From positions 3,658,001 to 3,722,000 of the forward strand of contig NZ_JAFBCN010000001.1 in the NCBI RefSeq assembly GCF_016907755.1: a stretch of 64,000 nucleotides of DNA. The letters run 5' to 3'. The notes below the pieces were generated by a model. That model did not search any database. It saw nothing but the letters and a program-made list of their open reading frames with translations, and was not told the DNA's origin. A program made the position numbers and the translations under genes. Shown in pieces: positions 14,915-40,946 of this stretch (position 1 is the first letter of the stretch; each line of letters begins with the position of its first letter). This stretch comes from Cellulosimicrobium cellulans (GTDB lineage: Bacteria; Actinomycetota; Actinomycetes; Actinomycetales; Cellulomonadaceae).

Positions 14915-17101
14915 ATGACCGCCGAGCAGACGACGAGCCCCTCGCTCTCGCCCGAGAGCCCCACCGAGACCACGCTCCCCGACGACGGCGCGCCCCACGA
15001 CCCGTACCTCTGGCTCGAGGACGTCGAGGGGGACGAGGCCCTGACCTGGGTCCGCGCACGCAACGCCGAGGTCGCCGACACGCTCGAGGTCGCCGAGGAG
15101 TTCACGACCACCGAGCGCGCGATCCGCGAGGTGCTCGACTCCGACGCCAAGATCCCCGAGGTCTCCAAGATCGGGGACCGCTACTACAACTTCTGGCGCG
15201 ACGCGCAGCACGAGCGCGGCCTCTGGCGCCGCACGACGCTCGAGTCCTACCGCACGGACGACCCCGAGTGGGAGACCGTGCTCGACCTCGACGCGCTCGC
15301 CGCCTCGGAGGGCGAGTCCTGGGTCTGGCACGGCGCGAGCGTGCTGCGCCCGACGCCGGAGCAGCTCGCCGCGGGGGACCCCTGGCGCCACGCGCTCGTC
15401 GAGCTCTCCCCCGGAGGCTCCGACGCCGACGTCACGCGCGAGTTCGACCTCGTCGAGAAGCGGTTCGTCGCCCCCGGCGACGGCGGGTTCCTCCGCGCCG
15501 AGGCCAAGGGCTCGCTCGGCTGGGTCGACGCCGACACCGTCTACGTCTTCACCGACTTCGGCGCGGGCACGCTCACGCCGTCCGGGTACCCGCGCGTGGT
15601 CAAGCGCTGGACGCGCGGCACCCCGCTCGAGGACGCGGCGACCGTCTACGAGGGCACCGACGAGGACATGTACATTTCCGCCTGGCGGTCGCACACGCCC
15701 GGGTTCGAGCGCGACTTCGTGCACCGCTCCAAGGCGTTCTACGCCGACGAGCTCTACCTCGCCGAGCGCACCGGCACGCCCGAGCAGCGCCTGACGAAGA
15801 TCGACGTGCCCGACTCCGCCGAGGTCGGCGTGCGGCGCGAGTGGATGCTCGTCGAGCTGCGCGACGACTGGACCGTCGGCGGCGCGACGTACCGCGCGGG
15901 CTCGCTGCTCGTCGCCCGGTTCGACGACTTCCTCGCGGGCGACCGCGGCTTCACCGTGCTGTTCGAGCCCACGGCGACGACGTCGCTCGCCGGCGCGACG
16001 TGGACACGCCACCACCTCGTGGTCAACGTGCTCGACGACGTGAAGAACCGCCTGCACGTGCTGACGCCGCCGGAGGCCGACGACGCGCCGTGGGTGCGCT
16101 CGGAGCTGCCGGGCCTGCCCGCGCTCGGCACCGTCGCCGTCGGCGCGGTCGACCCCGTCGACACCGACGACCTCTGGCTCGTCACGACCGACTACCTCAC
16201 CCCGACGACGCTCTCGCTCCTGACGCTCGGCGAGCACCCGGGCGACGCGAGCGCGCCCGAGGTCGTCAAGTCCAACCCGGCGTTCTTCGACGCCGCAGGC
16301 ATGACGGTCGCCCAGCACTTCGCCACGTCCGACGACGGCACGCGCGTGCCGTACTTCGTCGTCGGCCGCGCGGACCTCGTCGCCGGTGCGAGCGACGGCG
16401 GCACGGGCACCGCGCCGACGCTGCTGTACGGGTACGGCGGCTTCGAGATCTCGCTGACCCCCGCCTACTCGGGCGCGCTGGGACGGGCGTGGCTCTCGCG
16501 CGGCGGCGTGTACGTCGTCGCGAACATCCGCGGCGGTGGCGAGTACGGCCCGGCCTGGCACCAGGCCGCGCTCAAGGCGAACCGGCACCGCGCCTACGAG
16601 GACTTCGCCGCCGTCGCGCGCGACCTCGTGGCCCGCGGGATCACGACGCACGAGCACCTCGGCATGGAGGGCCGCTCCAACGGCGGCCTGCTCGCCGGCA
16701 ACATGCTCACGCAGTACCCCGAGCTCTTCGGCGCCGTGATCGTGGGCGTCCCGCTGCTCGACATGCGCCGCTACACGAAGCTCCTCGCCGGGGCGTCGTG
16801 GGCCGCGGAGTACGGCGACCCGGACGACCCCGAGCAGTGGGAGTTCATCCGCACCTTCTCGCCGTACCACCTGTTCGACGCCGAGCGCGAGTACCCGCCC
16901 GTGCTGTTCACGACGTCGACCAAGGACGACCGCGTCCACCCCGGCCACGCGCGCAAGCTCGCCGCGAAGATGCTCGGCGAGGGCAAGGACGTCACCTACT
17001 ACGAGAACATCGAGGGCGGCCACGGCGGCGCCGCGAACAACGCCCAGGCGGCGCACATGGCCGCCGTGCACTACCGCTTCCTCGCGGAGCGCCTCGGCTG
17101 A
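14915..17101 (+). CDS. S9A prolyl oligopeptidase family peptidase (oligopeptidase B-like)
   Basis: A 728-residue serine peptidase with an N-terminal beta-propeller (roughly 70-440) and a C-terminal alpha/beta hydrolase domain. The catalytic serine is S588 in GRSNGG; the aspartate is in TKDDRVHP and the histidine in GGHGGAANN. These enzymes cleave short peptides inside the cell. No signal peptide is seen; the first ~25 residues are a low-complexity acidic/serine-threonine tail. The gene is divergent from adhE and ends seven bases from the convergent lipoprotein gene. Preference for proline versus basic residues cannot be settled by eye. Confidence 0.9.
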   Translation: MTAEQTTSPSLSPESPTETTLPDDGAPHDPYLWLEDVEGDEALTWVRARNAEVADTLEVAEEFTTTERAIREVLDSDAKIPEVSKIGDRYYNFWRDAQHERGLWRRTTLESYRTDDPEWETVLDLDALAASEGESWVWHGASVLRPTPEQLAAGDPWRHALVELSPGGSDADVTREFDLVEKRFVAPGDGGFLRAEAKGSLGWVDADTVYVFTDFGAGTLTPSGYPRVVKRWTRGTPLEDAATVYEGTDEDMYISAWRSHTPGFERDFVHRSKAFYADELYLAERTGTPEQRLTKIDVPDSAEVGVRREWMLVELRDDWTVGGATYRAGSLLVARFDDFLAGDRGFTVLFEPTATTSLAGATWTRHHLVVNVLDDVKNRLHVLTPPEADDAPWVRSELPGLPALGTVAVGAVDPVDTDDLWLVTTDYLTPTTLSLLTLGEHPGDASAPEVVKSNPAFFDAAGMTVAQHFATSDDGTRVPYFVVGRADLVAGASDGGTGTAPTLLYGYGGFEISLTPAYSGALGRAWLSRGGVYVVANIRGGGEYGPAWHQAALKANRHRAYEDFAAVARDLVARGITTHEHLGMEGRSNGGLLAGNMLTQYPELFGAVIVGVPLLDMRRYTKLLAGASWAAEYGDPDDPEQWEFIRTFSPYHLFDAEREYPPVLFTTSTKDDRVHPGHARKLAAKMLGEGKDVTYYENIEGGHGGAANNAQAAHMAAVHYRFLAERLG

Positions 17102-21322: not shown

Positions 21323-22372
21323 TCAGGCGTGGGCGCGCTCGGCCAGGACGTCGGCGACGCGGCCGAGGTTCGCGAGCAGCGCGCGGTGCTCGTCGGGGGT
21401 GCCCACGACGCCGCGGCCCGGCCCTCCCCCGGCCGCGCGCGAGGCGCCCAGGAGCGTCACGTCGTCGAGCGCGGCGAGCGGGAGCCCGATGCGGCGCCAC
21501 GGCACGCTGACCGCGTCGGCGAGCTCGCCCAGCGCGGGGCCGGCACACTGCGACACCTTCGCGGGCGGGAGCGCGGCCCAGAGGCCGACGCCCCGCTCGA
21601 CCGCACGGGCGACGGTCTCCCACAGCCGCTCGTCCCACGCGCCGACCGCGAGGCCGACGGCGTCCGCGCCCGCGAGCACGACGGGCGCCACCCCCACCCG
21701 GGCGGGCCCCACGTGGACGACGGTCGACGCCGACGCGGCGCGCGCGGCGTCGAGCACGGGCCGCAGCCCCTCCACGAGGTCCGGGCCCGGTACCGCCCGC
21801 AGGCGCGAGTAGCCCGAGAACGACGGGAGCACGCCCGCCCCGACCTGGGCGAGCAGCGGCTCGTCGACCTGCACGACGACGTCCGCCCCGGGGACCTGCC
21901 GGCGCACCTGCGCGACGTGGTCACCCACGGCCACGGCGAGCGCCTGCACCACCTCGCGCACCGCTCCCCGGTCGGACAGCACGCGGTCGCCGCGCGCGAG
22001 GTAGAGGTCGGCGGCGAGCGTCCACGGCCCGGTGACGGTCACGGCGAGCGGACCGGAGTACCCGGCGCCCGCGATGGCGAGCGCCTCGAGGTCCTCGCGC
22101 AGGTACGCGTCGGCCCGGCGCAGGTCCGCACCCCCGTGGTCCGCGAGCTTCCAGCCGTGCGGCCCCAGCTCGACCGGGAGGCCGGGCAGCAGCGCGGCCG
22201 TCCGCCCGGTCGCGTCCGCGCCGGGGCCGCGCCCCGCGAGCTGGACGAGGAACGGCACCCCGCGCACGCCCGTCGGGACCTCGGCGAGGTCGCCGAGCAC
22301 GGTGAGCTGCGCCTCCAGCACGTCCGCGCCCTCGCCGCCGGGCCACGGGCCGAGCCCGCTCACCGCGGTCAC
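21323..22372 (-). CDS. MetE-like (cobalamin-independent methionine synthase C-terminal domain) protein
   Basis: A 349-residue single-barrel protein resembling the C-terminal half of MetE, as found in many Actinobacteria between mnmA and ligA and often annotated methionine synthase. Family features include the N-terminal GLGPWPG, GPWTLA, VQVDEPLLAQVG and a GLAVGAW strand. In MetE a zinc ligand pair reads HxC; here the matching strand appears to read VVHVGPA with no cysteine. Full-length MetE is ~750 residues, so the folate-binding N-terminal half is missing as in its relatives. Methyl transfer to homocysteine is therefore doubtful. GTG 22372 (GGGGG six bases upstream) is chosen; GTG 22387 is possible. 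Confidence 0.75.
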   Translation of the reverse strand: MTAVSGLGPWPGGEGADVLEAQLTVLGDLAEVPTGVRGVPFLVQLAGRGPGADATGRTAALLPGLPVELGPHGWKLADHGGADLRRADAYLREDLEALAIAGAGYSGPLAVTVTGPWTLAADLYLARGDRVLSDRGAVREVVQALAVAVGDHVAQVRRQVPGADVVVQVDEPLLAQVGAGVLPSFSGYSRLRAVPGPDLVEGLRPVLDAARAASASTVVHVGPARVGVAPVVLAGADAVGLAVGAWDERLWETVARAVERGVGLWAALPPAKVSQCAGPALGELADAVSVPWRRIGLPLAALDDVTLLGASRAAGGGPGRGVVGTPDEHRALLANLGRVADVLAERAHA

Positions 22373-35809: not shown

Positions 35810-37066
35810 ATGAGCGTGCACGACGACGCGTCCCGACCCGGACGACCCGCCCTCACCTCGGGTACGGGACCGGTCGGGCACGGCGAGCCGGCCGGGCCGG
35901 GCGTCGTCCAGGAGCCCGGCCCGGAGCCGGAGACCGGCCCGTCCGACGTCGCTGCGTGCGAACGCGTCTTCCGCCGCAACGGGCTCCCGCTCCTCGTCGA
36001 GGGTCACTCCGTGGACCGTGACGTCTTCGGTCGGTCGGCACCGTTCCTGCTCGTCGTGCTGCTCGCCGAGCTCACCGGCGCCCTCCGCTCCGGCTGGCCC
36101 GCCTGGGCGAACGCGCTCGCGCTCCTCGGCGGCGCCGCGATCGTCGCCGGCGCCTACGCGGGACTCAACGTGCTGCGCGGGCGCGCGTGGTCGACCCTCC
36201 CCCAGTCGGTCGGCGTGCCCGAGCTCGCGTTCTTCGTGCTCGTCCCGGCGCTCCTGCCGCTCGTGTTCGGCGGGCAGTGGGACGAGGCGCTGCTCACCGT
36301 CGTGGGGAACCTGGTGCTGCTCGGGGTGTTGCGCGTCGTCGTGGGGTACGGCGTGCTGTCGTCGCTGTGGTGGGGCCTCGCGCGCGTCACGGACGAGCTC
36401 GGCGCCGCCCTCCTACGGCTCGTGCGGCTGCTCCCGCTGTTGCTGGTGTTCTCCCTCGTCCTCTTCTACAACGCCGAGGTCTGGCAGGTGTTCGACCGCA
36501 CGCACGGGGTCGCAGACCTCGTGCTGGGCGCGTTCTTCGCGCTGCTCGTCGTGCTGTTCGTCGCGCTGCGCTCCCCGGGCGAGGCGCGCGAGGCCCTCGC
36601 CGAGACGGCTGCGCGGCTGCCCGGGCACGAGCGCGCGACGCGCTTCAGCCGCGGCCAGACGGCGAACCTCGCGACGATGATCGCGAGCAGCCAGCTCCTG
36701 CAGGTCCTCGTCGTGAGCCTCGGCATGGGCGTGTTCTTCATGGCGCTGGGGACCCTCACCGTGACGCCGGAGGTCATGGCGCTGTGGGACGTCGACGGCG
36801 GCACCTGGCAGCAGACGCTCTCGCTCGCAGGCGGCGGCGGGGTGGGCGGTGCGGACCTCGTCGTCACCCAGACGCTCCTGCGCGTCTCCGTCGCCATCGC
36901 GACCTTCACCGGCCTCTACTACGCGATCTCCGTGCAGGTCGACGCGGTCTACCGCGAGGAGTTCGTCGACGGCATCGAGACCCAGCTCGCCGACGTCGTC
37001 CGCACCCGCACTCGCTACCTCGCCCTCCTCGACACCCGCGAGATAGAGCCTCCGGTCGTGAGATAG
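35810..37066 (+). CDS. polytopic membrane protein of unknown function
   Basis: A 418-residue protein: a proline/glycine-rich N-terminal ~50 residues, then about seven or eight transmembrane helices, with a conserved-looking cytoplasmic segment RFSRGQTANLATMIASSQLLQ before the last helices. I do not recognise the family. The last eight codons and the TAG stop lie inside the 69-bp palindromic element at 37039-37107, so the native C-terminus may have been changed by insertion of that element. Confidence 0.75.
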   Translation: MSVHDDASRPGRPALTSGTGPVGHGEPAGPGVVQEPGPEPETGPSDVAACERVFRRNGLPLLVEGHSVDRDVFGRSAPFLLVVLLAELTGALRSGWPAWANALALLGGAAIVAGAYAGLNVLRGRAWSTLPQSVGVPELAFFVLVPALLPLVFGGQWDEALLTVVGNLVLLGVLRVVVGYGVLSSLWWGLARVTDELGAALLRLVRLLPLLLVFSLVLFYNAEVWQVFDRTHGVADLVLGAFFALLVVLFVALRSPGEAREALAETAARLPGHERATRFSRGQTANLATMIASSQLLQVLVVSLGMGVFFMALGTLTVTPEVMALWDVDGGTWQQTLSLAGGGGVGGADLVVTQTLLRVSVAIATFTGLYYAISVQVDAVYREEFVDGIETQLADVVRTRTRYLALLDTREIEPPVVR

Positions 37067-37107
37067 AGCTCCGCGAGCCCTACCTCGCTGCGGGAGCCTC
37101 TATCTCG
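37039..37107. repeat. 69-bp imperfect palindromic element, left copy
   Basis: Two GAGATAGAG boxes 20 bp apart (from 37040 and 37060) face two inverted boxes of the same kind on the right (37080-37088 and 37099-37107). Length and box positions match the element at 38209-38277; I count about 53 of 69 identical bases. It supplies stop codons to both convergent flanking genes. Arms are imperfect (about 7 mismatches in 30 bp). Confidence 0.8.
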
Positions 37108-38104
37108 TGGAACGTCGCGCGAGCGCGGCCCGGATCCGGCGAACGAGGACGTCGGGTTCCGCGAGGTCGTTCCACGTCACCCGCAGGACGAACCACCCGG
37201 CCTCCGTCAGGGCGTCGTGCCTGGTCTTCTCCGCGAGCAGGCGGCCCCGCGGGTCGCCGTACTCGCCGCCGGAGTACTTGACGGCTCCGTCGAACTCGAC
37301 CGCGACGCGGTACGTCGCCCACGCGACGTCCAGCCGGTACGTGCCTCGCCAGGTCGTCACCGCGAGGTTCGGCTCGGGGTGCGGGAGGCCCGCGTCGACC
37401 ACCAACCAGCGCACCACGCTCTCGCCCGGCGACTCCGACCGGGGATCGGCCTCGGCGACGACCCGACGTGCGCGCCGGACGCCACGCCCACCGGCGGCCG
37501 CGTCCAGGACGGCCGTGACCTTCCGGACGTCAGCCCCGGCACGGAGCCCCGAGTCCGCGACCACGACGCCTGCCGTCGGGTCGAGCGAACGAGCGCAGTC
37601 GACGATCGTGCGCTCCAGCGAGGTGATCGGCAGACCGTCGAGCTCGCAGCGGTCGCTCTCGGGCAGCGCCGTCCAGTGCCTGCGGAACCCCGAGTCGGTC
37701 CGGCGCACGGACGGGTTCCCGAGCTGCGTCACGTGGACCTCGTCCTCGAGCCGCCAGGTCCACAGCCCGTGCAGGACTGCGGCGGTCGAGTGGCTGAACC
37801 AGTAGTCCGTCGTCAACCGTCCCGCGAGCGCTACCGCACGCGCGACGACGGCGTCGCGCCGACGCTGCGCCGGCGGAGCCCCCGAAGCCGGCGGGGCCGC
37901 GTAGACACCCCGACGCACCCGGACGAGCGTGCCGCGGCAGACCCCGGCCGCGATCTCGGCGCGCCGCTCTGCCGAGAACCGGACCACCGACGGCAACGGC
38001 ACGGAAGCACGCGCATCGTCGTCTCGCCCGGGCGGGCGCCGCGTGTCCCGGGGACGACTCGCCGTCCGACGTGTCTGCACGACCTCGTGCTCGTCCGTGC
38101 TCAT
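37100..38104 (-). CDS. AbiEi-like HTH plus DUF559-type endonuclease-fold protein
   Basis: A 334-residue protein. Near residues 40-75 lies a short winged-helix-like segment (GTLVRVRRGVYAAP) like the antitoxin domain of AbiEi family proteins. The C-terminal ~100 residues look like a DUF559/Vsr-type PD-(D/E)xK nuclease: RLDVAWATYRVAVEFDG followed by KTRHDALTEAGWFVLRVTW. Such proteins are common and often multi-copy in Actinobacteria; their role is unknown. ATG 38104 is chosen at the start of the MSTDEHEV segment; the frame is open to 38209. The gene lies between two 69-bp palindromic elements, and its TAG stop is inside the left one. Confidence 0.78.
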   Translation of the reverse strand: MSTDEHEVVQTRRTASRPRDTRRPPGRDDDARASVPLPSVVRFSAERRAEIAAGVCRGTLVRVRRGVYAAPPASGAPPAQRRRDAVVARAVALAGRLTTDYWFSHSTAAVLHGLWTWRLEDEVHVTQLGNPSVRRTDSGFRRHWTALPESDRCELDGLPITSLERTIVDCARSLDPTAGVVVADSGLRAGADVRKVTAVLDAAAGGRGVRRARRVVAEADPRSESPGESVVRWLVVDAGLPHPEPNLAVTTWRGTYRLDVAWATYRVAVEFDGAVKYSGGEYGDPRGRLLAEKTRHDALTEAGWFVLRVTWNDLAEPDVLVRRIRAALARRSTR

Positions 38105-38208
38105 GGGCACAGACTGGCCGAGCACGCCGGCCGCAGCCAGGGCCGGCCACGAACCTGTGGACAACCGTCGACCGCGTGCGGCGGGCTCGTCCCGGCCACC
38201 GGCTCCCA

Positions 38209-38277
38209 CGAGGTAGAGCCTCCGGTCGCGACGTAGAACACCGGGTGTTCTACGTCGCGACCGGAGGCTCTACCTCG
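38209..38277. repeat. 69-bp perfect palindromic element, right copy
   Basis: Arms 38209-38241 and 38245-38277 are perfect 33-bp reverse complements around a 3-nt loop (CGG). The boxes GAGGTAGAG and GACGTAGAA repeat at 20-bp spacing in each arm. It lies 11 bp past the glgP stop and upstream of the nuclease gene. As RNA it would form a very stable hairpin and may end glgP transcription. Confidence 0.9.
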
Positions 38278-38288
38278 GCGGGGGTGCG

Positions 38289-40889
38289 TCAGGCGTTGGC
38301 GACGAGGCCGAGCTCGGCGACGCTGGGGAGGCCGGCGTGCGTCGGGACGACGCGCACCGTGTAGCCGAACGGGCCGGACGCGTCGAGCACGACGTCGCCG
38401 GCGAACGCGTAGCGGCCGGCCTCGTACGTCTCGGCGAGCGCGAGCGGCTCGGCGGTGAACTCCTCGATGACGTCGGCCTCGCTGACGCGGCCGTGCACGA
38501 CCTGCACCTGCACGTCCTCCGGGCGCAGGTCGCCCAGCGAGACGTACGCGCGCACCGTGAGCCGGTCGCCGACCTGCGGCACCTCGCCGATGCCGGACGA
38601 GTCGACGTGGTCGACGCGCACGCGCGACCACCCGGTCCGCACGGACTCCTTCCAGTGCGCGAGCTCGCGCGCGGGGGCGAGGCCGTCCGCGGCGAGCGCC
38701 CGACCGGCCGCCGCGGCGGGCGCGTACAGGCGCGTGACGTACTCGCCGACCATGCGCGTCGCCTGGACCTTGGGGCCGAGCGTGGAGAGCGTGTGCCGCA
38801 CCATCTCGAGCCACCGGTCGGGGACGCCGTCGGCGGTGCGGTCGTAGAAGCGCGGCGCGACCTGCTGCTCGACGAGGTCGTAGAGCGCCGACGCCTCGAG
38901 GTCGTCGCGGCGGTCGGGGTCCTCGACGCCGTCGGCGGTGGGGATGGCCCAGCCGTTCTCGCCGTCGAACCACTCGTCCCACCACCCGTCGAGGATGGAC
39001 AGGTTGAGGCCGCCATTGAGCGCCGACTTCATGCCGGACGTCCCCGACGCCTCCAGGGGCCGCAGCGGGTTGTTGAGCCAGACGTCGCAGCCCGGGTAGA
39101 GCGACTGCGCCATGGCGATGTCGTAGTTGGGCAGGAAGACGATGCGGTGGCGCACCTCGGGGTCGTCGGTGAAGCGGACGAGCTGCTGGATGAGGCGCTT
39201 GCCCTGGTCGTCCGCGGGGTGCGACTTGCCCGCCACGACGAGCTGCACGGGGCGCTCGGGGTGGAGCAGCAGCGCCTTGAGGCGCGCGGGGTCGCGGAGC
39301 ATCAGCGTGAGCCGCTTGTACGTGGGCACGCGCCGCGCGAACCCGATGGTGAGGACGTCGGGCGAGAGCACGTCGTCGACCCAGCCGAGCTCGGCCGGGG
39401 TCGCGCCGCGCTCGCGCCAGGACTTGCGCACGCGGCGGCGCGCCTCGTCGACGAGCCGGCCGCGCATCTCGCGGCGGATCGCCCACAGCTCGCCGTCGCT
39501 CACGCCGCCGTCCCCGGCACCGCGCAGCCAGCCCGACGACGCGTCGGCGGCGGTGAGCTCGTCGAGCCCGAGCCGCTCGGACTCGAGGGCCGCGAAGGCG
39601 GGGTCCACCCACGTGGGCGAGTGCACGCCGTTCGTCACGGACGTGATGGGGACCTCGCGCGCGTCGAACCCGGGCCACAGGCCCTCGAACATGCCGCGCG
39701 ACACCTCGCCGTGCAGCAGCGAGACGCCGTTGGCGCGGCCGCCCAGGCGCAGGCCCATGACGGCCATGTTGAAGACGGTCGGGTCGCCGCCGTCGTAGTC
39801 CTCGGCGCCGAGCGCGAGGACCCGCTCCACGGGCAGTCCGTCCACGGCCATGTCGCCGCCGAAGTACTGCGTGACGAGGTCGCGCCCGAACCGGTCGATG
39901 CCGGCCGGGACGGGCGTGTGCGTCGTGAAGACGGTCGCGGCGCGCACGGCCTCCAGGGCTTCGTCGAACGTGAGGCCCTGCTCGACGAGCTCACGGATGC
40001 GCTCCACGCCGAGGAAGCCGGCGTGCCCCTCGTTGGTGTGGTAGACCTCCGGTGCCGGGGCGCCCGTGAGGCGCGACCACAGGCGCAGCGCGCGCACGCC
40101 GCCCACGCCCAGCAGGAGCTCCTGCTGGAGGCGGTGCTCCCCGCCGCCGCCGTAGAGGCGGTCGGTGACCTTGCGCGCGGCCTCGTCGTTGCCGGGCACG
40201 TTCGAGTCGAGCAGCAGCAGGGGGACGCGACCCACGGCTGCGACCCACACGTGCGCGTGCAGCGTCCGACCGCCCGGGAGGGCGAGGGAGACGCGCGCGG
40301 GCGTGCCGTCGTCGTCGCGCAGCAGGGTCAGCGGGAGCCCGTCCGGGTCGAGCAGCGGGTAGGTCTCGACCTGCCAGCCGTCGCGCGTGAGGGACTGCTT
40401 GAAGTACCCGGCGCCGTACAGGAGCCCGACGCCGACGATCGGCACGCCGAGGTCGCTCGCGCTCTTGAGGTGGTCGCCCGCGAGGATGCCGAGGCCGCCG
40501 GAGTACTGCGGCAGCACGGACGTGATGCCGAACTCGGGCGAGAAGTACGCGATCGCGGCGGGGAGCGGGTCGCTCTCGTCCTGCGAGGCCGCCTGCTGCT
40601 GGTACCACAGCGCGTCGTCGAGGTAGTGGCGCAGGTCGGCCGCCGCCGCGCGCACGCGCTCGACGAACGCGCCGTCGGCCGCGAGCTCGGCGAGGCGCTC
40701 CGGGCCGAGCGCGCCCAGCAGGGCGACCGGGTCGCCGTGGACGGACGCCCACGCCTCGGGGTCGATGCCGGCGAACAGGTCGCGCGTCGGGGCGTGCCAG
40801 GACCAGCGCAGGTTGTGGGCCAGCTCGTCCAGGTCGCGCAGCTCGGCGGGCAGCAGGGTGCGGACGGTGAACCGTCGGATCGCTCTCAC
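38289..40889 (-). CDS. glgP: alpha-glucan (glycogen) phosphorylase
   Basis: An 866-residue GT35 phosphorylase of the short actinobacterial/archaeal type with an N-terminal DUF3417 domain (LAHNLRWSWH). It releases glucose 1-phosphate from alpha-1,4-glucan. PLP is bound by K621 in EASGTSGMKSALNGG; EVYHTNEGHAGF and FTTHTPVPAG line the active site. GTG 40889 has TAGTCT seven bases upstream. It diverges from the glgE operon, so breakdown and synthesis genes share one ~170-bp control region. A perfect hairpin element follows its stop. Confidence 0.96.
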   Translation of the reverse strand: MRAIRRFTVRTLLPAELRDLDELAHNLRWSWHAPTRDLFAGIDPEAWASVHGDPVALLGALGPERLAELAADGAFVERVRAAAADLRHYLDDALWYQQQAASQDESDPLPAAIAYFSPEFGITSVLPQYSGGLGILAGDHLKSASDLGVPIVGVGLLYGAGYFKQSLTRDGWQVETYPLLDPDGLPLTLLRDDDGTPARVSLALPGGRTLHAHVWVAAVGRVPLLLLDSNVPGNDEAARKVTDRLYGGGGEHRLQQELLLGVGGVRALRLWSRLTGAPAPEVYHTNEGHAGFLGVERIRELVEQGLTFDEALEAVRAATVFTTHTPVPAGIDRFGRDLVTQYFGGDMAVDGLPVERVLALGAEDYDGGDPTVFNMAVMGLRLGGRANGVSLLHGEVSRGMFEGLWPGFDAREVPITSVTNGVHSPTWVDPAFAALESERLGLDELTAADASSGWLRGAGDGGVSDGELWAIRREMRGRLVDEARRRVRKSWRERGATPAELGWVDDVLSPDVLTIGFARRVPTYKRLTLMLRDPARLKALLLHPERPVQLVVAGKSHPADDQGKRLIQQLVRFTDDPEVRHRIVFLPNYDIAMAQSLYPGCDVWLNNPLRPLEASGTSGMKSALNGGLNLSILDGWWDEWFDGENGWAIPTADGVEDPDRRDDLEASALYDLVEQQVAPRFYDRTADGVPDRWLEMVRHTLSTLGPKVQATRMVGEYVTRLYAPAAAAGRALAADGLAPARELAHWKESVRTGWSRVRVDHVDSSGIGEVPQVGDRLTVRAYVSLGDLRPEDVQVQVVHGRVSEADVIEEFTAEPLALAETYEAGRYAFAGDVVLDASGPFGYTVRVVPTHAGLPSVAELGLVANA

Positions 40890-40896
40890 GGGGACG

Positions 40897-40902
40897 AGAC
40901 TA
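40897..40902 (-). promoter_or_regulatory. -10 box of a probable leaderless promoter (glgP)
   Basis: TAGTCT on the minus strand, seven bases before GTG 40889. Confidence 0.5.
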
Positions 40903-40946
40903 CGCAGGCCGAGGCCGGTGCACACCCTCGCGGTGTCACGCGCACG

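What the first reader, a model, noticed from the sequence alone, without database searches (positions are those of the whole stretch)
37039..38277. A nuclease-fold gene bracketed by two 69-bp palindromic elements of identical design
Elements at 37039-37107 and 38209-38277 are both exactly 69 bp, share about 53 of 69 bases, and both place GAGRTAGAG-like boxes at the same positions (two direct, 20 bp apart, then two inverted). Between them lies one gene, for a protein with an AbiEi-like HTH and a DUF559/Vsr-like nuclease fold. AbiEi proteins are known to bind inverted repeats. The layout recalls REP elements with their RAYT transposases, but with a nuclease-type protein. The unit could be a small selfish or defence element; that is inference.
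Basis: partly seen in the sequence, partly recalled or inferred. Interest (0 to 1): 0.75.

Follow-up and report, generated by a model that had tools for sequence, protein, structure and literature searches.

The report
Nuclease gene with its own palindromes
A bacterial gene for a DNA-cutting type of protein is bracketed on both sides by copies of its own short palindrome, the palindrome is scattered through the genome, and many sister genes across actinobacteria have a palindrome of their own, which suggests a new kind of small mobile DNA system.

Summary
Observation confirmed exactly: two 69-bp palindromes (53/69 identical) bracket one gene for an AbiEi-like part fused to a Vsr/DUF559-like nuclease part (genus Cellulosimicrobium). 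The pairing is general: in 117 family loci of actinobacteria the two flanks of one gene resemble each other (median score 65; cross-locus 24), with different palindromes for different genes. Elements are dispersed: 15 full copies in the window's genome. A prediction of box type from flanks held in 3 of 3 genomes, with one unpredicted extra. At this locus two gene alleles (52% identical) are scattered over the glgP tree; in three species pairs, flanks 85-98% identical diverge within the outer boxes, so gene plus brackets seem exchanged as a cassette. Two genomes inferred to have changed or lost the gene keep arrays of the other spacing. Y1 transposases (RAYTs) are absent in 17 of 17 genomes. 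Best reading: a REP/RAYT-like system built on an unrelated nuclease. Pairing about 0.95; analogy about 0.7; cutting of boxes and driven spread is inference, about 0.5. Against: orphan boxes in five genomes; 20 of 77 and 13 of 40 tested loci not above the strict control; no biochemistry.

The parts
37039..37107 (.). Bracketing palindromic element 1 (69 bp, four boxes), overlapping the 3' ends of two convergent genes
38209..38277 (.). Bracketing palindromic element 2 (69 bp, perfect 34-bp inverted repeat), about 105 bp upstream of the nuclease gene's start
37040..37048 (+). box GAGATAGAG
37060..37068 (+). box GAGATAGAG; contains the TAG stop (37064-37066) of the convergent ORF
37078..37086 (-). 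degenerate box (GAGGTAGGG on the minus strand)
37098..37106 (-). box GAGATAGAG; contains the TAG stop (37100-37102) of the nuclease gene
38210..38218 (+). box GAGGTAGAG
38230..38238 (+). variant box GACGTAGAA
38248..38256 (-). variant box GACGTAGAA
38268..38276 (-). box GAGGTAGAG
37100..38104 (-). Gene for a 334-aa protein: AbiEi-like N-terminal part (PADLOC match, residues 48-177) and Vsr/DUF559-like C-terminal part (weak Pfam match at about residues 254-327, converted from the longer ORF scanned; D259, E270, K276 invariant in 53 relatives)
35810..37066 (+). Neighbour: ORF that looks like a membrane protein by eye, no Pfam match, convergent with the nuclease gene
38289..40925 (-). Neighbour: alpha-glucan phosphorylase type gene (DUF3417 + Phosphorylase), called glgP here

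Best explanation
The unit is one member of an actinobacterial class of nuclease-palindrome pairs. Seen in the sequences: (1) genes joining an AbiEi-like part to a Vsr/DUF559-like nuclease part are mostly bracketed by two copies of a palindrome made of ~19-21-bp units, each with a ~9-12-bp box; (2) different gene types have different palindromes; (3) where it was searched, the same palindrome is scattered through the genome, mostly near gene ends; (4) at the glgP locus gene and brackets differ between close species as a cassette whose limits lie in the outer boxes. Inferred: the AbiEi-like part binds the box, units about two helical turns apart line proteins up on one face of the helix or on a hairpin, the nuclease cuts or nicks at the palindrome, and repair from another copy (or from a foreign cassette with homologous flanks) spreads solo elements and replaces cassettes, as in homing. 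This is how REP/RAYT systems look, but the enzyme is unrelated to RAYTs.
For: Bracketing: 57 of 77 genome-contig loci (80 fetched, 3 with short flanks dropped; 19 of the 77 are loci I had already read by eye, so 43 of 58 on fresh loci) and 27 of 40 class-wide loci exceed the 99th percentile of same-locus control window pairs; over 117 loci the own 3' flank is the best match of 117 in 73. Specificity: gene pairs under 50% protein identity share elements (score >53) in at most 0.3% of pairs per identity bin. Box tracks gene: CGAGGTAGTAC, predicted from glgP-locus flanks of G001, G011, G016, counts 35, 71, 50 there and 4-13 in 13 other genomes. Dispersal: 15 full-length places at E 5e-9 or better in the own genome, 246 boxes against 72 for the reversed pattern; 22 and 13 distinct places in two genomes of another family, none in three genomes of other genera. 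Cassette exchange. Arrays of the other spacing in G007 and G012. Presence/absence and unit number differ at intergenic sites. No Y1 transposase in 17 genomes, control positive in 5 of 14. Invariant D259, E270, K276 in 53 relatives.
Against: No biochemical evidence of binding or cutting. Orphan boxes without a matching gene: A boxes in G006 and G007 (311, 328), TAC boxes in G015 (128), D boxes in G004 and G014 (44, 28); a profile search of G004, G006, G007, G015 found no family gene flanked by them. The relic explanation fits the spacing in G007 and G012 but is post hoc. 20 of 77 and 13 of 40 loci are not above the 99% control, and single control pairs score as high as 130 and 318. Box B and box D follow their genes only loosely. 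No target-site duplication was shown; the apparent cassette limits are also where two alleles would begin to differ if ordinary recombination in the flanks moved them.
Confidence: 0.7

Rival explanations
1. Regulator and regulon: the protein is mainly an AbiEi-type DNA-binding regulator, the upstream palindrome is its own operator and the dispersed boxes are sites of a regulon; the nuclease part is secondary.
For: AbiEi similarity in 53 of 53 members of A2; element 2 lies ~105 bp upstream of the start. That AbiEi proteins bind inverted repeats is recalled knowledge.
Against: A second copy lies at the gene's 3' end; 13 of the 15 full copies in G000 have a predicted gene 3' end within about 100 bp, by my ORF heuristic; copies and unit numbers differ between close species; the catalytic-type residues are invariant.
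Confidence: 0.13
2. Classical transposon: the two elements are terminal inverted repeats and the gene is a transposase-like nuclease that moves the whole unit; solo elements are MITEs.
For: Bracketing on both sides; gene-less dispersed copies; cassette limits in the outer boxes.
Against: The gene sits at the glgP locus in 14 of 17 congeners, with a remnant in a 15th; no congener has two hits above 61% identity to the window protein; many elements are tandem arrays of variable unit number rather than fixed ends.
Confidence: 0.1
3. Defence or immunity-type cassette: alleles with different box specificity are exchanged because they act on foreign DNA; dispersed boxes mark self or are sites of action.
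For: Replacement of diverged alleles resembles swapping of restriction specificities (the resemblance is from general knowledge); PADLOC label AbiEi.
Against: Neither neighbour matches a PADLOC model, and no methylase domain was found in them by Pfam; boxes of a type without resident gene persist.
Confidence: 0.04
4. The palindromes are ordinary terminators or structural repeats of high-GC genomes, made by slippage and recombination, and their match on both sides of the gene is incidental.
For: Position near gene ends; strong hairpins.
Against: Same-contig control windows rarely show such matches; flank repeats are specific to the gene and box type followed gene type in a prediction; no T-run follows either window element.
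Confidence: 0.03

Closest known systems
REP elements and RAYT / TnpA-REP transposases (REPtrons, REPINs)
   Same: Gene flanked by two copies of a palindrome; cognate palindromes scattered in the genome; orthologous genes keep their place while flanking palindromes change (passages of PMC2817692); protein and palindrome co-evolve (abstract of PMC8266576).
   Different: The protein is AbiEi-like plus Vsr/DUF559-like, not Y1/HUH; PF01797 absent in 17 of 17 genomes; the element is four ~19-21-bp units or a tandem array, longer than the 20-40-bp REPs described in the start of the abstract of PMC3733652.
AbiE (type IV toxin-antitoxin) antitoxin AbiEi
   Same: N-terminal part matches PADLOC AbiEi models in 53 of 53 members.
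   Different: Carries a nuclease-like part; neither neighbour matches a PADLOC model.
Vsr-like / DUF559 / MTES_1575 REase domain proteins
   Same: Pfam matches to MTES_1575 in 8 and DUF559 in 5 of 53 members at E 0.001; below cut-off for the window protein.
   Different: I know of no dispersed palindromes for them; MTES_1575 REase was described as a domain of a HEPN multidomain protein (two passages of PMC3710099).
Homing endonucleases, including the EDxHD group
   Same: Nuclease genes at boundaries of genetic exchange (title and start of abstract of PMC10448857); EDxHD named among homing families (start of abstract of PMC6083498). That EDxHD is Vsr-like is recalled.
   Different: Here the gene has its own palindromic brackets and a scattered element population; no intron or intein was seen.

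Membership tests
REP/RAYT (REPtron) | Y1 (HUH) transposase domain PF01797 | tested here: not met
   No such hit in the window protein; 0 of 17 congeners, control positive in 5 of 14 named genomes
REP/RAYT (REPtron) | gene flanked on both sides by cognate palindromes | tested here: met
   for this locus; for the family
REP/RAYT (REPtron) | cognate palindromes dispersed in many copies | tested here: met
   gene context by my ORF heuristic
REP/RAYT (REPtron) | GTAG or CGTC head tetranucleotide | tested here: inconclusive
   By reading only: GTAG occurs inside clade-A boxes and CGTC inside box D, neither in box B (GAGATCGACC) or several others; position as a 'head' not tested
REP/RAYT (REPtron) | cleavage of single-stranded palindrome by the protein | not testable with these tools
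   needs purified protein
AbiE toxin-antitoxin system | AbiEi-type antitoxin domain | tested here: met
   (PADLOC); Pfam AbiEi_4 below cut-off
AbiE toxin-antitoxin system | adjacent AbiEii nucleotidyltransferase toxin | tested here: not met
   the two neighbours in the window are a phosphorylase and an ORF without Pfam or PADLOC match; other loci not scanned
Vsr/DUF559-type nuclease | PD-(D/E)XK-like fold with conserved acidic residues | tested here: inconclusive
   weak Pfam matches; confident model (pLDDT 89.6) and invariant D259, E270, K276; fold comparison switched off; no solved relative by sequence
Homing endonuclease | cuts an allele that lacks the gene and copies itself in | not testable with these tools
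   cassette replacement pattern in three species pairs; no cutting assay

The most novel reading that the evidence does not exclude
A class of bacterial miniature mobile DNA, widespread in actinobacteria and independent of RAYTs, in which an AbiEi-Vsr type nuclease cuts palindromic boxes and so homes: it spreads its own palindrome into intergenic sites, replaces rival cassettes at fixed chromosomal addresses, and leaves populations of relic boxes behind when it is replaced. REP-like biology would then have arisen at least twice from unrelated enzymes.
Probability: 0.5. Interest if true: 0.95.

Novelty: categorically new. Interest (0 to 1): 0.88.

Why it matters
REP elements are known with one enzyme family, RAYTs. 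A second, unrelated gene family with the same habits, present in at least 107 of 148 sampled genomes of the class at E 1e-12, would show that pairing a nuclease with a palindrome is a general way for small DNA to persist in bacterial genomes. It would give a role to a large group of genes now named only by DUF559 or as orphan AbiEi antitoxins, could explain many intergenic palindromes of actinobacteria, and offers many natural protein-box pairs with which recognition, cutting and spread can be tested directly.

Tried and rejected
Rejected: chance repeat; purely local duplication; a RAYT elsewhere in the genome; simple terminators. A first glgP tree was wrong because several fragments were read in a wrong frame; one search replaces it. 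Box B: the reversed-pattern control is useless (0 or 1), so only ranks count: the five genomes with a clade-B gene have 125, 121, 119, 92 and 72, the other twelve 39-78. Box D: genomes with a clade-D gene 59, 52, 36, 24, 14 and 6 (the last, G011, shows a different box in its flanks), without it 44 (G004), 28 (G014) and 6-19 in nine others; reversed-pattern controls are 10-31, so only G000, G002, G003, G004 and G014 stand clearly above. An apparent strand bias in the place list is a listing artefact: minus-strand boxes known from L014 are missing from it. Rfam gave nothing at the elements. Solved structures by sequence: only ribosomal S20 at E 0.016 or worse, taken as spurious. Literature: ten searches; no listed title or abstract start concerns repeats beside DUF559 or AbiEi nucleases. 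The library is open-access PMC only, so this is weak evidence of novelty.

Full report
Observation. The two elements are as described: 69 bp each, 53 of 69 shared, first and second of the window in ungapped self-complementarity, four boxes each. They lie at gene ends: the nuclease gene and the convergent ORF both take their TAG stop from a box of element 1.

The gene. It encodes 334 aa. Pfam matches to DUF559, MTES_1575 and AbiEi_4 are below cut-off, but a PADLOC AbiEi model matches residues 48-177 at 1.3e-14, and all 53 members of alignment A2 match AbiEi models. AlphaFold gives a confident model (pLDDT 89.6, pTM 0.85). In the 53 relatives D259, E270 and K276 are invariant, as expected of a PD-(D/E)XK-type site; that reading is from general knowledge. 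Fold comparison was not available.

Own genome. The window lies in a 4.79-Mb chromosome. A search with element 2 finds 15 distinct full-length places at E 5e-9 or better, the window's two included, and weaker or partial ones. GAGRTAGAG occurs 246 times against 72 for the reversed pattern. By a simple ORF heuristic of mine, 13 of the 15 copies have a predicted gene 3' end within about 100 bp; several ORF calls run up to about 40 bases into an element, and one (L017) overlaps the 5' part of an ORF call.

Gene family and brackets. All 17 congeners searched have homologues. Reading the flanks of 30 loci showed that paralogues at other loci are bracketed too, by other palindromes: GAGATCGACC, GAGYGCTGCGTC, GAGATCGGYA and others. 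This was then measured. Of 80 loci from genome contigs, 77 had usable flanks; the best alignment score between the two 350-bp flanks had median 63 against 26 in 1329 control pairs from the same contigs; 57 of 77 exceed the control 99th percentile. For 40 loci of 20 families, chosen by me from the list of a class-wide profile search before seeing their flanks (107 of 148 genomes positive), the median was 67 against 25 in 740 controls, with 27 of 40 above the 99th and 33 of 40 above the 95th percentile. Single control pairs reached 130 and 318. Together (117 loci) the within-locus median is 65 and the cross-locus median 24; the own 3' flank is the best of 117 in 73 cases; pairs under 50% protein identity share an element (score >53) in at most 0.3% per bin, pairs above 75% in 44%. 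Of 15 further paralogue loci in five congeners, several of them partial and two pairs of them orthologous, 9 score 53 or more and 7 above 53; no control was run there.

Architecture. In most of the 27 loci printed the shared repeat is a palindrome of about 70 bp with two direct and two inverted units. Unit spacing is typical of a family: 20 bp in type-1 and 21 bp in type-2 arrays, 19 bp for box D (positions).

Box follows gene. From the glgP-locus flanks of G001, G011 and G016 I predicted that CGAGGTAGTAC would be frequent in these genomes: counts are 35, 71 and 50, against 4-13 in 13 others; G015 with 128 was not predicted. Boxes B and D follow their genes less cleanly (numbers in Tried and rejected).

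Dispersal outside the family. An element beside a relative in another family (L211) gave 49 matches in its genome G028 and 26 in G047 of the same genus, which I count as 22 and 13 distinct places, brackets included; 3 matches in G075 of that genus; none in G062, G088 and G070 of other genera (at most 40 candidates per genome were scored).

Exchange of cassettes. glgP was found in 17 of 17 congeners. The nuclease gene lies beside it in 14, a remnant in G016, nothing in G006 and G007. Thirteen of the 14 genes have no internal stop (in one, G013, the match is split over two frames); all thirteen have at least two boxes on each side within 450 bp, while the gene with a stop (G011) has boxes on one side only. 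The genes form two types, 0.79 and 0.80 identical within and 0.52 between, while glgP fragments are 0.78, 0.75 and 0.77; on the glgP tree the types need 6 changes against 5.7-5.9 for shuffled labels, and G008 (type 1) and G010 (type 2) are sisters with 99/97 support, though much of the tree is weak. In G008/G010 the glgP side is 97.1% identical up to base 1362 of L033 and the other side 96.7% from base 2555, both within the bracketing elements; between them only part of the gene aligns, at 67%. G012/G002 and G004/G014 break at 1358 and 2566, with flanks of 85-98%. Ordinary recombination in the flanks could give the same picture, so the limits suggest but do not prove action at the boxes.

Relics and turnover. 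In 400-kb samples, same-strand box spacing is mostly 21 bp in G007 without the gene (11 against 2 at 20 bp) and in G012, which has a type-1 gene (16 against 3, these three in its two brackets), but 20 bp in G000 (7 against 3). This fits replacement of a type-2 by a type-1 cassette in G012 and loss in G007. It may also explain the unpredicted TAC boxes of G015, whose glgP groups, weakly (75/90), with G016 and G001. Between G000 and G012 (90.5% identical over the aligned chain) a six-box array of G012 is missing at the matching site of G000, another site has three units against one degenerate unit, and at both dispersed type-1 elements of G000 in the sample G012 has type-2-like boxes. Between G002, G009 and G010 one site has 3, 0 and 4 units.

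Comparison with known systems. In layout this is the REP/RAYT arrangement: RAYT genes are always flanked by two inverted REPs and keep their place while REPs change (passages of PMC2817692), and protein and REP co-evolve (abstract of PMC8266576). But the enzyme is unrelated, and Y1 transposases were found in none of the 17 congeners. A term search of the paper on GTAG and CGTC REPs (PMC3733652) found no mention of Actinobacteria, Cellulomonas, Sanguibacter or Isoptericola. I therefore call the unit REP/RAYT-like in working, not a member. The label 'categorically new' refers to this enzyme-palindrome pairing; if any enzyme with dispersed palindromes counts as one kind, 'new variant of a known kind' would be the label.

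Against. No biochemistry; orphan boxes in G004, G006, G007, G014 and G015, with no partner found in the four of these that were profiled; a quarter to a third of loci not above the strict control; no target-site duplications shown; the literature search covers open-access papers only.

Noticed in passing
L071 / G011:C13:61949-62881 and L073 / G016:C8:64319-64543: Decaying copies of the nuclease gene at the glgP locus: one with an internal stop, one reduced to fragments, each keeping a few boxes on one side.
   Followed up: partly
L164 (G002:C9:148517-149609): A 1.1-kb stretch, absent from G009 and G010 at the same place, that holds a direct box array and, about 0.5 kb further on, an opposed degenerate array.
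   Followed up: partly
G004, G006, G007, G014, G015 (counts): Many boxes of a type for which no partner gene was found in the genome.
   Followed up: partly
window 15752-15760 and 21998-22006: Two single GAGGTAGAG boxes away from the unit; chance or decayed elements.
   Followed up: no
L061 (G006) and L062 (G007), downstream of glgP: glgP is followed by another gene (by eye like a zinc-type dehydrogenase, not scanned) instead of the nuclease cassette and the convergent ORF.
   Followed up: no
L135 (contig QAPD01000044.1, same length as G008:C74): A contig named Sphaerisporangium cinnabarinum ATCC 31213 belongs by length and grouping to the Cellulosimicrobium genomes; the name looks wrong.
   Followed up: no
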